A stretch of 64,000 nt of DNA from Amaranthus tricolor. Its lineage: Eukaryota > Streptophyta > Magnoliopsida > Caryophyllales > Amaranthaceae. The translations under genes and the position numbers were made by a program. Below, piece after piece: positions 9,671 to 62,105 of the stretch. The notes beneath the pieces are model-generated. The model did not search any database, had not been told where the DNA came from, and saw nothing but the letters and a program-made list of their open reading frames with translations. The DNA is taken from positions 3,145,144 to 3,209,143 of the forward strand of contig NC_080050.1 in the NCBI RefSeq assembly GCF_026212465.1, in the 5' to 3' direction. Position 1 is the first letter of the stretch, and the number at the start of each line of letters is the position of its first letter.

Positions 9671-10327
9671 TCAGCGGGATCGAGGAGTACTTGCCAATGA
9701 CGACGATAACGACAAAAACGACCCCGGTTTAGCACCACTAGTAGAAGAACAACAATTACTAGTGGACCCACTACCACATTTAGCAACAGTTCTGACACTC
9801 TCAATCAACTGTTGAGTTTTATTATCTTGCGACAAAATCTCTGACAATTGCTCCGGGTTTATAACCAGCCTCACTTTCCATACACCCGTACCATTATACT
9901 TGGGCACAACATCCGGGTCGGGTTGATTCTTGTACACCATTCGGGTACCCACATCTACCGACATCCTATAAGGGGCGGTTGCCAACACACTATCTTTCCC
10001 TATTAATGTAGTGTCGGTTGGGGAAGAGATAGAAAGAGGAAGGAGATAGTAAAGATGACCCGGGGTTAAAATTTCGTTGTGTGAAAGTGCCGGGTGGGTC
10101 GGGTTCGGGTTAAGAAATAACCCATGGTTTGAAAATTCGGATGTAATTTGCTCAACCGTGATTGGAGCATAAAGCTCCATAATACCTCCCGTTGTTGTTA
10201 CAACTTTGATCATAGACGTTTGTTCTGCCGCCAATATGTATTGTTGGCGGCGGTCAGAATGATTATGATCATCTAATTTTGACGCGGTTGTATTATTATA
10301 GTAATCTTTAAAAACACAGTTTCCCAT
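9671..10327 (-). CDS. PADRE / DUF4228 domain protein
   Basis: A single-exon gene of 218 residues. It starts MGNCVF, and Gly2 plus Cys4 suggest N-myristoylation and palmitoylation, hence membrane attachment; this is usual for the family but unproven here. The N-terminal part (about residues 38-100) carries the PADRE signature: a TTGGIMELYAPITVEQI strand, then HLYYLLPL. The C-terminal part carries WKVRLVINPEQLSEILSQ and TQQLIESVRTVAKCG (about 148-186), diagnostic of plant DUF4228 proteins. The tail is serine-rich and ends in TPRSR. Members are plant-specific and respond to abiotic stress and pathogens; their biochemical activity is not established. The intact frame, the usual length and the ATG at the start of the motif support a functional gene. 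An overlapping minus frame (9,532-9,804) is a shadow. The upstream flank (10,330-10,530) is pyrimidine-rich in gene direction, as expected of a 5'UTR. Confidence 0.93.
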   Translation of the reverse strand: MGNCVFKDYYNNTTASKLDDHNHSDRRQQYILAAEQTSMIKVVTTTGGIMELYAPITVEQITSEFSNHGLFLNPNPTHPALSHNEILTPGHLYYLLPLSISSPTDTTLIGKDSVLATAPYRMSVDVGTRMVYKNQPDPDVVPKYNGTGVWKVRLVINPEQLSEILSQDNKTQQLIESVRTVAKCGSGSTSNCCSSTSGAKPGSFLSLSSSLASTPRSR

Positions 10328-18229: not shown

Positions 18230-18310
18230 AAATAAAAAGGCCTAATTATGCCGAAAATTTGAAATAAATAAGCAAAAATATATATATAAAAAAATCACAT
18301 TGTAGCTAAC

Positions 18311-18580
18311 TTTTAAAATTATTTTCCAAGATAAGTTGTTTTTTTGCTAGACTTGAGGTTTGGGGTTGTTCGCACTTAATAACAGCGAACAAAATCAGAG
18401 GGTTAAAAAAAGCAAAGGGTCTGTTCGCTATTACTAACAGAGAACAAAGCTAAAACCTGGTCAAATAGGAGATCTGTTGTTTTTAGCTCGCATCAGTTTG
18501 CTGTTACTAACAGCGAACAACCCTAAACTACAACTTTGGAAAAAAACTGCTTATCTTGGGAATTATTTTGCAAAGTTTAC
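18311..18580. mobile_element. Foldback element with TGTTCGC palindromes, copy 1
   Basis: Outer arms CCAAGATAAGTTGTTTTTTT and the inverse of AAAAAAACTGCTTATCTTGG enclose three 25-bp near-palindromes (18,367-18,391; 18,422-18,446; 18,495-18,519). The best has arms TTTGCTGTTA / TAACAGCGAA around a single C. Nothing is encoded. The related copies lie at 51,161-51,499 and 61,915-62,105. Confidence 0.75.
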
Positions 18581-18710
18581 TATTGTATGAATTTTTTATA
18601 TTTTTTTGTTGCCCTAAATAAAATGATCATTTTTATCTTGAAGTAATCACTTACAGTCTTAAAATAATTGTTTATAACCTTAAAGTAATCACTTATATTT
18701 TTAAAGTAAT

Positions 18711-34789: not shown

Positions 34790-35004
34790 AGAAGGATAAA
34801 AAAGATTTATTTTGGTCACTATATGTACAAAACATACTATAATATAAATTAAAAATATTTTTCAGTATTTAGGAATATATAGTAACTTTTACAATTAAGT
34901 AATTCTAACTCAATTATGACTTAGATTCTTTTATCTTATTGAAATTAAGAATGTATAATATTTTTTTATTTTATTTTAAACATCCTTCTTATTGGATTCC
35001 ACCC

Positions 35005-35592
<588 letters not shown>

Positions 35593-35702
35593 GATCATAT
35601 CATATCATATATAATGTATTATGTTTAATAGATATAACTATAACAAAAATCACCCGTTTCGCAAAAAAAAAATCCTTTTTCCAATATATAATCTTTCACA
35701 AA

Positions 35703-37806: not shown

Positions 37807-38786
37807 TTACTGTGAAGAGGAAGCTGCATGTGCTGTCTTCTTTGATGATGCCTTTTTTGCCTTGCATGTCACTGCATTGTGGCCTAGTTCTTTGCATAGG
37901 CTGTATTTGTTATTCTTATGCCTCTTTCCTTTTTTTGCTTCACGAGCAGCTCTTCTCCTTTACTTAGGTGGTCTGCCAGCATTTCTTTTCCCTTGGGGTG
38001 GTGCAATTTCTGGCACATCTAGTGAAGGCCAGTGAGTTGGATGAGCCATGGGGTGGATGTGGTCTCCATATGTGAGATTGTAAGCAGCCCCCTTGTAGAA
38101 AGGTGAGACAAAGTCCCTAGGATCAAGTCTCTGGTTGTAAATGACCCTTAGCCCATGCTTGCAAGGGATCCCTGATCCTTGCCATTTCCCACACCCACAA
38201 GTCATATTTCCAAGGGTGACAGGGAACTTGACATGGCCATCCCTCACTTCAAACTCTCCACCACCAGCTGCAGTGACATGGCAGAACCTAGAATTATCAG
38301 TCCTAGTCGCCAGCACCCCCTTTGCATGCTTTGTTAGATCATTAGGTTCCATGCTTACTGCTTTATCGAACCTGGAACCCATCCTTTTCATGCACCAATT
38401 CCTGACATCTTAATTATTCAAAAAACCAAAAAAAAAAAATACACAGTAAGCAACAACAATTTTTTTGCATTTAAATAAGCAAAACATGGACACAAATTTA
38501 CCTCCAGCAATGTCAACACAGGCATGTCCCTGTTGGCCTTTGTTATTTCATTGAATGACTCCACAAAGTTTGTTGTGTTATGATCACAACAAACTATCCT
38601 GTCAAACATGTGCACACTCCACTGCTCTTCTACATTTTTGAGATAGTCATATGCTGTTGCATCAAAATCTTTTATCTTGGACATAGCTTTTTCAAAAATG
38701 TACTCATTGTAGGCATTTGCCGCAATCCAAAACATCTTATGAAATGCTGCCCCACTCCATCCTGCAGCCTTGCAATTTGAGTACAA
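37807..38786 (-). pseudogene. Mutator-like (MuDR) transposase, C-terminal half, broken
   Basis: The upstream segment (38,786-about 38,500) encodes WSGAAFHKMFWIAANAYNEY, then EQWSVHMFDRIVCCDHNTTN and FVESFNEITKANRDMPVLTL, the conserved region after the MULE DDE core. After a small intron-like gap, 38,391-37,960 encodes the SWIM zinc finger (CGCGKWQGSGIPCKHG, a C-x-C...C-x-H pattern) and ends GKRNAGRPPK at a TAA. The same frame continues to 37,807 with a basic zinc-knuckle region, LCKELGHNAVTC. The first knuckle cysteine is tyrosine (TAC). The catalytic N-terminal half is missing, and the gap junction does not splice cleanly. Host-domesticated FAR1/FHY3 or MUSTANG genes are an alternative, but the truncation argues against one. 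Confidence 0.88.
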
Positions 38787-50850: not shown

Positions 50851-51160
50851 CTTATAATATCCTTCAAAAAAATTAAAAGAAATTAATCCACATTCAAACC
50901 AAACCTTGTGATTGGATGAGAGTCCATCCAAAAAAATTGAAAGAATAGGGCCTAATGGTTCAAAAGATTTTATGAAGCGCATATGAATTATGAATGGACC
51001 TAAGGAACCAATAGGACCACCATCTATTGGTACATAACCATAACACGCTTCTGGGCCTAACCCTTTTAAAAGCGGGCAGCCAGCCTACCACATTTGGATA
51101 AGAAGGATATAGAAAATTTGAAATGTATAAGACAATTTATTAAAAAAATAAACAAAATAA

Positions 51161-51499
51161 TATAAGTTTCAACTTTATTCCAAAATCAAACGCAAAATTC
51201 TCAAATCTGAGGGAGATTTGGGGCTGTTCACAGTTAGTAACTACGAACAGGTTAAAAAAGACAAAATAGTTGTTCGCAGTTACTAACTGCGAACAGCTAT
51301 TTGACCTGTTATTGTGGAGCATGTTGTTCGCAGTTACTAACTGGGAATAGATAAAAATAGGTCAAATAGCTATTCGCAGTTAGTAACTGCAAACAACTAT
51401 TTTGTCTTTTTTGACCTGTTCGCAGTTACTAACGAACGGCTCCAAACCTCAAATTTGGGAATTTCACGTTTACTTTTGAAATAATATTGAAACTTATAC
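51161..51499. mobile_element. Foldback element with TGTTCGC palindromes, copy 2 (best preserved)
   Basis: TATAAGTTTCAA at 51,161 and its inverse at 51,499 are the ends. Moving inward, AAATTCTCAAATCTGAG, GTTAAAAAAGACAAAATAGT and AGCTATTTGACCTGTT all recur inverted, so the whole 339 bp folds on itself. Five 25-bp palindromes lie inside (starting at 51,224, 51,271, 51,325, 51,371 and 51,417). That at 51,271-51,295 is perfect: TGTTCGCAGTTA, C, then the complement. Nothing is encoded. Confidence 0.82.
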
Positions 51500-51699
51500 T
51501 ATTTTATTCATTTTTTTTATAAATTATCTTATACATTTTAATTTTTCAAGGATATACCTAGTGGCCCGAATATCCCCATAATCTTTTGCTTGAAAAAACT
51601 ATACTGAGTTGCTTTTATAAGTGGCTGATCTTCGGTGATACAATTTTAAATAAAAAGCTTAATCTCATATTATGTATTAGATGGATTATTTAACTCTTA

Positions 51700-61914: not shown

Positions 61915-62105
61915 TTAATATAAAAAATTCAAAAAATAAGCAACTTTTAAACTTAATTTTCAAAATAAACACTTTTTGCCCAGAGCACAGATTCGGAGTT
62001 GTTCGCTATTAGTAACAACGAATAAAGAAGTTGCTTATTTTGGGAATTAAATGCTTATTTTGCTTATTTTGGGAATTAAGTTTAGAAGTTGTTTATATGT
62101 GGAGG
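61915..62105. mobile_element. Foldback element with one TGTTCGC palindrome, copy 3
   Basis: The left arm ATAAGCAACTTTTAAACTTA then ATTTTCAAAATAA and the inverse of GAATTAAGTTTAGAAGTTGT on the right enclose one palindrome at 62,000-62,024 (TGTTCGCTATTA / GTAACAACGAATA). TTGCTTATTTTGGGAATTAA is duplicated on the right side. It is the shortest of the three copies. Confidence 0.68.

What the first reader, a model, noticed from the sequence alone, without database searches (positions are those of the whole stretch)
51161..51499. Foldback family built from a repeated 25-bp palindrome, with paired changes in the arms
Seen: three loci (18,311-18,580; 51,161-51,499; 61,915-62,105) share inverted ends and hold nine 25-bp near-palindromes in total. 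At 51,271 the arms are TGTTCGCAGTTA and its complement. At 18,495 they are ...TTTGCTGTTA and TAACAGCGAA, so CAG/CTG became CTG/CAG on both sides. Inference: the arms change together, either because new copies arise by foldback copying or because the hairpin is selected. I know no described plant family with this unit. The palindromes could be protein-binding sites, DNA cruciforms or small-RNA hairpins.
Basis: partly seen in the sequence, partly recalled or inferred. Interest (0 to 1): 0.75.

Follow-up and report, generated by a model that had tools for sequence, protein, structure and literature searches.

The report
Palindrome-filled foldback mini-transposons in amaranth
The hairpin-like spots are worn copies of a very common, non-coding jumping-gene family of the foldback Mutator type in an amaranth genome; the matching changes in the palindrome arms mostly reflect two subfamilies rather than a special pairing process.

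Summary
The genome is an Amaranthus, very probably A. tricolor. The stated ends are too narrow. The main copy is a 436-bp element at 51,112-51,547 with a perfect 9-bp target-site duplication, AAGGATATA. Of 40 related copies, 24 have perfect 9-bp duplications. It is a foldback-type, Mutator-like (MULE) MITE: two ~205-bp arms carrying five palindromes. The 18-kb copy belongs to a second subfamily (B) and has collapsed internally; the 62-kb copy is short, its right end not found.

The paired change is strong at one position only (position 8, A or T), where it marks subfamilies. Elsewhere arm changes are mostly one-sided: 437 one-sided, 43 complementary. Subfamily B fixed a mismatched first palindrome (left A in 29 of 30 copies, right T in 28). 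Both argue against general selection for pairing. Short deletions break preferentially inside palindromes, so hairpins probably form, but as a source of damage and unit turnover. No transposase source was found. I rate it a new member of a known kind (compare MuTAnT, FARE, Muta1).

The parts
51103..51111 (.). left target-site duplication AAGGATATA
   Evidence: identical 9 bp on both sides
51112..51547 (+). subfamily A foldback MULE MITE, 436 bp, 88% identical to the majority of 40 copies
   Evidence: single strand folds into one long hairpin, z = -24
51548..51556 (.). right target-site duplication AAGGATATA
51112..51220 (+). left terminal inverted repeat outside the palindrome array, begins GAAAATTTGAAAT; inner limit approximate
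51440..51547 (-). right terminal inverted repeat outside the palindrome array; inner limit approximate
51225..51249 (.). palindrome P1 (2 mismatches to unit)
51271..51295 (.). palindrome P2 (perfect; -11.4 kcal/mol as DNA hairpin)
51325..51349 (.). palindrome P3 (2 mismatches), near the centre of the foldback
51371..51395 (.). palindrome P4 (2 mismatches)
51417..51438 (.). palindrome P5, damaged by a 3-bp deletion in the right arm
18253..18607 (+). subfamily B copy; units 3 to 5 apparently collapsed into one palindrome; last 17 bp of the right end not matched
   Evidence: two collinear matches to the L010 element overlapping at 18508-18520; aligned with 29 further copies
18367..18391 (.). B palindrome P1, hybrid: left arm A at position 8, right arm T type
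18422..18446 (.). B palindrome P2
18495..18519 (.). B palindrome, probable fusion of P3 and P5
61891..62103 (+). short B-related copy: left end, palindrome P1, part of right inverted repeat; right terminus not found
   Evidence: 76% over positions 1-139 of the L010 element; inverted arms 61929-61971 / 62061-62103
62000..62024 (.). palindrome P1 of the short copy (3 mismatches; hardly folds alone)

Best explanation
The three loci are old copies of a high-copy, non-coding, foldback-type Mutator-like MITE superfamily. Shown: 9-bp target-site duplications; shared termini GAAAATTTGAAA; an element that is almost wholly an inverted repeat; five copies of a 25-27-bp palindrome in the full-length copies of two well-sampled subfamilies (A, with A at arm position 8; B, with T in nine of ten arms), plus several other subfamilies. 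Shown: within copies the palindrome arms differ mostly by one-sided changes, C-to-T and G-to-A being the commonest, and by short deletions. Inferred: a MULE transposase acting in trans moved them. Inferred: the matched change at position 8 arose once and spread through the array of a source element by turnover of whole palindromes (unequal exchange, slippage or snap-back copying), then was copied to the whole subfamily. The hairpin itself need not be selected.
For: Duplications: 24 of 40 A copies perfect, 7 with one mismatch (a best-of search near the ends, and L064 at an odd length may be chance). In 35 elements pre-filtered at two or fewer mismatches, 19 are perfect, against 0 of 175 pairs with two or fewer mismatches when the flanks are shifted. 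Structure: 204 of 218 position pairs of the A majority are complementary, palindromes at 110, 156, 211, 257, 303. Arms: only position 8 departs strongly from independence in 239 palindromes (196 agree, 116 expected). B: P1 left arm A in 29 of 30, right arm T in 28 of 30; the other eight arms are T in nearly all copies that have them. Changes seen in one copy only, at A/T sites: palindrome, spacer, inverted repeat 0.011, 0.013, 0.014 per cell in A and 0.014, 0.022, 0.020 in B; none of the contrasts is significant (p 0.11 to 0.61), so upkeep after insertion is not detected. Turnover: 30 of 36 breakpoints of 18 distinct short deletions fall in palindromes, which make up 52% of the array; three of seven long B deletions (112 bp) equal the P3-P5 distance.
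Against: No transposase-bearing element with these ends or this unit was found. Complementary double changes exceed shuffles slightly (17 against 6.9 and 26 against 16.3), with 9 of 13 in P4 in the A alignment, so a little arm-to-arm copying or shared ancestry remains. The long inverted repeats outside the palindromes change together strongly (220 complementary against 94 shuffled), which sub-subfamily structure explains but which foldback copying would also give. In A, 73 of 281 palindrome changes are G-to-C or C-to-G, which methylation decay does not explain.
Confidence: 0.88

Rival explanations
1. New copies arise by foldback copying: during replication or repair one arm templates the other, so arms change together.
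For: Position 8 differs on both arms between subfamilies; both halves of A are near-perfect inverted copies; in the B majority the spacers on either side of P4 are near-inverted copies of each other (read by eye); small excess of complementary double changes.
Against: 437 one-sided against 43 complementary changes in 368 palindromes; the hybrid P1 of B stands unrepaired in nearly all 30 copies.
Confidence: 0.25
2. The palindrome is a conserved protein-binding site (transposase, element-encoded anti-silencing protein, or host factor binding as a dimer) needed for spread.
For: In subfamily A, palindrome A/T sites have 31 private and 0 widely shared variants against 69 and 42 in the inverted repeats (p = 4e-6). 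In four elements whose inverted repeats have drifted to 62-72% identity to A (shuffled baseline mean 0.56, maximum 0.63) the palindromes are 92-98% identical to the unit (L042, L052, L083, L084).
Against: Against the spacers the contrast is borderline in A (p = 0.055) and absent in B (p = 1); in B even the contrast with the inverted repeats is weak (p = 0.1); at C/G sites A palindromes have 33 shared variants and do not lack them relative to spacers. Two other drifted elements have palindromes at only 76% and 85% (L007, L024), and palindromes below 73% would not have been detected. Array homogenisation would give the same pattern. B carries a mismatched P1.
Confidence: 0.35
3. The palindromes are small-RNA (miRNA-like) hairpins kept by the host.
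For: The whole element folds into one long hairpin, z = -24. In B, single-copy changes at A/T sites are somewhat rarer in palindromes (0.014 against 0.022 in spacers), not significantly.
Against: No significant upkeep of palindromes after insertion in A or B; no Rfam match at gathering threshold in the window; B P1 is mismatched in nearly all copies.
Confidence: 0.05

Closest known systems
MuTAnT (Medicago truncatula foldback MULE MITEs; PMC4486113, passages seen)
   Same: Non-coding few-hundred-bp MULE elements, long inverted repeats built of similar modules, hairpin fold, two subfamilies, 218 elements
   Different: MuTAnT targets TA microsatellites; duplications here are of varied sequence; module sequence not compared; a transposase-bearing AutoMuTAnT is known there, none found here
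FARE foldback transposons of Arabidopsis (Genetics 2000; paper not held, known here only through citations in PMC4486113 and PMC3169594)
   Same: Foldback with long palindromic ends, MULE-type transposase, plant (as cited)
   Different: Sequences not compared here
Muta1 (Aedes aegypti MULE, 'type2 Foldback'; PMC5225508, passages seen)
   Same: 8-9-bp duplications, inverted repeats holding arrays of short subterminal units, many non-autonomous derivatives
   Different: 12-bp direct tandem unit, autonomous copies known, animal
Tm1 (root-knot nematode Mutator/Foldback; PMC3169594, passages including part of the abstract seen)
   Same: 9-bp duplications, composite inverted repeats with variable numbers of a short unit, MITE-like members
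   Different: 14-bp direct unit, asymmetric 7-bp termini, animal

Membership tests
Mutator-like element (non-autonomous) | target-site duplication of about 9 bp | tested here: met
   24 of 40 A copies perfect 9 bp; 0 of 175 shifted controls with two or fewer mismatches
Mutator-like element (non-autonomous) | long terminal inverted repeats | tested here: met
   204 of 218 position pairs complementary in the A majority
Mutator-like element (non-autonomous) | related element encoding a MULE transposase with the same ends | tested here: inconclusive
   none in stretches around 20 MULE transposase places (4 of 5-7 kb, 16 of only 1.2 kb upstream), out of 150 scored and 2,301 first-look candidates; no long-range pair held up among 38 A-type and 5 B-type ends
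MITE | short, non-coding, high copy number | tested here: met
   293-550 bp in 55 of 56 rows with matching duplications; the 725-bp row, L018, is probably mis-paired; 1,406 first-look candidates
Foldback element | inverted repeats fill the element and hold repeated modules | tested here: met
MuTAnT | insertion into TA microsatellites | tested here: not met
   duplications of varied sequence
Stowaway/Tourist MITEs (defining 2-3 bp duplication recalled) | TA or TAA-type duplication | tested here: not met
   9 bp
FARE | sequence relationship to FARE1/FARE2 | not tested
   paper not held
VANDAL/VANC target arrays | short motifs arrayed in one orientation at high density | tested here: not met
   unit here is a palindrome in inverted pairs; motif description from PMC5735166 passages

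The most novel reading that the evidence does not exclude
The 25-bp palindrome is a dimeric binding site for a protein needed for mobility or for escape from silencing, retained across MULE MITE subfamilies whose ends diverged, with position 8 as its one free base. A recalled lead, from no call: both states fit the plant MYB core CNGTTR, with position 8 as its N, giving each unit two head-to-head MYB cores. A separate MULE class in the same genome carries arrays of a different inverted unit upstream of its transposase gene, so palindrome arrays may be a recurrent MULE device in amaranths.
Probability: 0.25. Interest if true: 0.5.

Novelty: new member of a known kind. Interest (0 to 1): 0.3.

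Why it matters
It turns a puzzling covariation into a testable case: with well over a thousand copies of one palindrome, one can separate what happens in the source lineage (whole-unit turnover) from what happens after insertion (one-sided decay, deletions inside palindromes). If the unit proves to be a binding site, it would give amaranths a tractable model for how MULEs keep recognition arrays. As a repeat family it is worth adding to Amaranthus annotation libraries.

Tried and rejected
Autonomous partner. A Pfam MULE search of the genome gave 150 scored places of 2,301 candidates. I read stretches at 20 of them: L054 (5.2 kb), L093-L095 (7 kb each) and only 1.2 kb upstream of the domain for L096-L111. 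None carries the unit as its own part; L054 holds a separate MITE copy beside a MULE. The 1.2-kb pieces may miss element ends, so this is weak negative evidence. A class with short transposase ORFs has its own inverted AGTCGC arrays, but the place where homology between its copies begins reads TGGG or similar, so it is not the partner. Two end patterns gave 38 and 5 places. The long-range pairs that I saw by eye, 19 and 44 kb apart on C12, are segmental duplications of one 408-bp copy with the same duplication AACCCATTT.

Published Amaranthus sequences. The EPSPS-linked MITEs of A. palmeri have a 3-bp TAA duplication (PMC3677901, passages), which differs; sequences were not compared. The EPSPS cassette paper (PMC5240378, passages) describes palindromic sequences in short tandem arrays beside EPSPS; I could not compare them, so a link to this family is open. 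Term searches found no 'MITE' or 'Mutator' at a word start in PMC9847342 and no 'MITE', 'palindrom' or 'foldback' in PMC12651990. 'No print match for the unit' rests on literature searches only; no repeat database was available.

Weak or flawed counts. One search split long B deletions into 30-bp pieces and is replaced, whose breakpoints come in pairs, are not independent and depend on gap placement. The 35 elements were pre-filtered. The 40 A copies include some with uncertain ends (9 with two or three mismatches in the best duplication) and one composite (L082). Copies were chosen by similarity to the window copies or by holding a perfect unit, so they are not a random sample. Shuffling tests ignore relatedness of copies.

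Full report
What is there. The window lies at G000:C4:3145144-3209143 of a 519.85-Mb genome in 45 contigs. A window gene (9,671-10,327, minus) is 94% identical to an Amaranthus hypochondriacus protein, the best of 385 hits. The A. tricolor paper reports 520 Mb, 17 chromosomes and a longest chromosome of 45 Mb (PMC9847342, passages), matching C1 at 45.4 Mb. I take the source to be A. tricolor or a close relative (inference).

Observation. Scanning the window for the unit gives exactly nine places, 0 in the reversed window. Genome-wide the exact unit TGTTCGCAGTTANTAACTGCGAACA occurs 1,724 times, reversed control 0.

True limits. The 51-kb element is 51,112-51,547, flanked on both sides by AAGGATATA. 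Among all 40 A copies, 24 have a perfect 9-bp duplication, 7 one mismatch, 3 two and 6 three. Shifting the flanks outward by 10, 20 or 30 or inward by 5 or 15 bases gave 0 of 175 pairs with two or fewer mismatches. Nine bases and long inverted repeats point to the Mutator superfamily (established knowledge; the same reasoning on 9 bp stands in PMC3169594).

Anatomy of subfamily A. The majority of 40 copies is 436 bp; 204 of 218 position pairs are complementary; five perfect palindromes start at 110, 156, 211, 257 and 303. The spacer between P4 and P5 is the reverse complement of that between P1 and P2 (read by eye). As single-stranded DNA the window copy folds into one long hairpin of -139 kcal/mol, shuffles -36. 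Of eight of the nine window palindromes folded alone, the best gives -11.4 and the worst -1.3.

Subfamily B. The 18-kb copy and 29 further copies align to a 486-bp majority with five palindromes. P2 to P5 carry T at position 8 in both arms in nearly all copies that have them. P1 has A on its left arm in 29 of 30 copies, C at position 9 in 27 of 30, and T on its right arm in 28 of 30. Thus nine of ten arms share one state and the outermost does not. In one search, where B stands for one copy (L010, 489 bp), the window copy matches 1-265 and 372-472, so the stretch between P3 and P5 and the last 17 bp are missing or changed. The 62-kb copy matches positions 1-139 at 76% and keeps part of the right repeat in inverse. 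Further subfamilies with other ends occur.

Do the arms change together? Genome-wide, among otherwise perfect units, 1,724 are A/A, 166 T/T and 1,931 in all, so 41 are mixed; independence would give about 337. So position 8 is coupled. In 239 palindromes of 49 non-overlapping loci it is the only position that departs strongly: 196 agree, 116 expected; the other 11 lie within 9 of expectation. In a larger set (419 palindromes, 108 loci, 11 of 119 dropped as overlaps or duplicates) the two pure classes of 245 and 123 (51 of other states left out) show 215 and 222 one-sided changes, 17 and 26 complementary ones (6.9 and 16.3 after shuffling) and 2 and 12 double changes that do not pair. The small excess is beyond shuffles (1 and 8 of 1,000 reach it), but shuffles ignore relatedness, and in the A alignment 9 of 13 sit in P4. 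The long inverted repeats outside the palindromes do co-vary (220 complementary, 94 shuffled), as expected if sub-subfamilies differ in both ends, though foldback copying would also give it.

Constraint. Changes seen in a single copy, at A/T sites, run at 0.011, 0.013 and 0.014 per cell in palindromes, spacers and inverted repeats of A, and 0.014, 0.022 and 0.020 in B. Palindromes are lowest in both, but no contrast is significant (p 0.11 to 0.61): upkeep after insertion is not detected. Variants shared by three or more copies are absent at A/T sites of A palindromes (0, with 31 private) but common in inverted repeats (42, with 69 private; p = 4e-6). Against spacers p = 0.055 in A and 1 in B, against inverted repeats in B p = 0.1, and at C/G sites A palindromes have 33 shared variants. 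This allows constraint or homogenisation in the source lineage and decides neither. C-to-T and G-to-A make up 150 of 281 palindrome changes in A and 188 of 262 in B, as methylated sites would decay (inference); in A another 73 are G-to-C or C-to-G, unexplained by that.

Hairpins as weak points. Of 18 distinct short deletions in the array, 30 of 36 breakpoints lie in palindromes, which fill 52% of it; three of seven long B deletions are 112 bp, the P3-P5 distance. This points to loss of arms and unit-to-unit exchange, the process that I think also spread the position-8 change.

Mechanism. Most likely: non-autonomous MULE MITEs moved in trans by a MULE transposase (inferred), whose palindrome arrays are reshaped in source elements by unit exchange, slippage or snap-back copying (suggested by the deletions and by the inverted spacers around P4 in B), then frozen in daughter copies that decay mostly one arm at a time (shown).

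Comparison. Foldback MULEs with modular inverted repeats are known in Medicago (MuTAnT), Arabidopsis (FARE, as cited), Aedes (Muta1) and Meloidogyne (Tm1), all seen as passages only. The unit itself was not met in six literature searches; palindromic arrays beside EPSPS in A. palmeri could not be compared. I file it as a new member of a known kind.

Noticed in passing
L054:3042-3342, L095:5052-5152, L096-L104: A MULE class with short transposase ORFs (334-395 aa) has two or more AGTCGC motifs upstream of the transposase in 10 of 11 loci, in both orientations in 9, reversed-motif control 0 in all 11; 9 loci of other MULE classes have at most 1 (for L054 and L095 the stretch counted was chosen after the palindromes had been seen). 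A plant-mobile-domain gene sits beside it in the two loci checked, L054 and L095. In L095 one perfect palindrome has 50-bp arms. Ends differ from the MITE.
   Followed up: partly
L112-L117 (C12:22.57-23.21 Mb): Six copies of one and the same 408-bp MITE insertion, same duplication AACCCATTT, 97-99% identical with flanks, in both orientations: a multiplied and partly inverted segment.
   Followed up: partly
window 37960-38391 (-): Fragment with a SWIM zinc finger, perhaps the end of a MULE or FAR1-like transposase; not linked to the MITE.
   Followed up: no
window 34939-35628: Long AT-rich microsatellite-like stretch open in several frames (isoleucine-tyrosine repeats).
   Followed up: no
A majority, right-hand junction of array and inverted repeat (degenerate left counterpart about window 51200-51223): A second small palindrome, CCCAAACC-TCA-GGTTTGGG on the + strand of the majority, sits where the palindrome array meets the inverted repeat, with a near-copy in inverse at the left junction (read by eye).
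   Followed up: no
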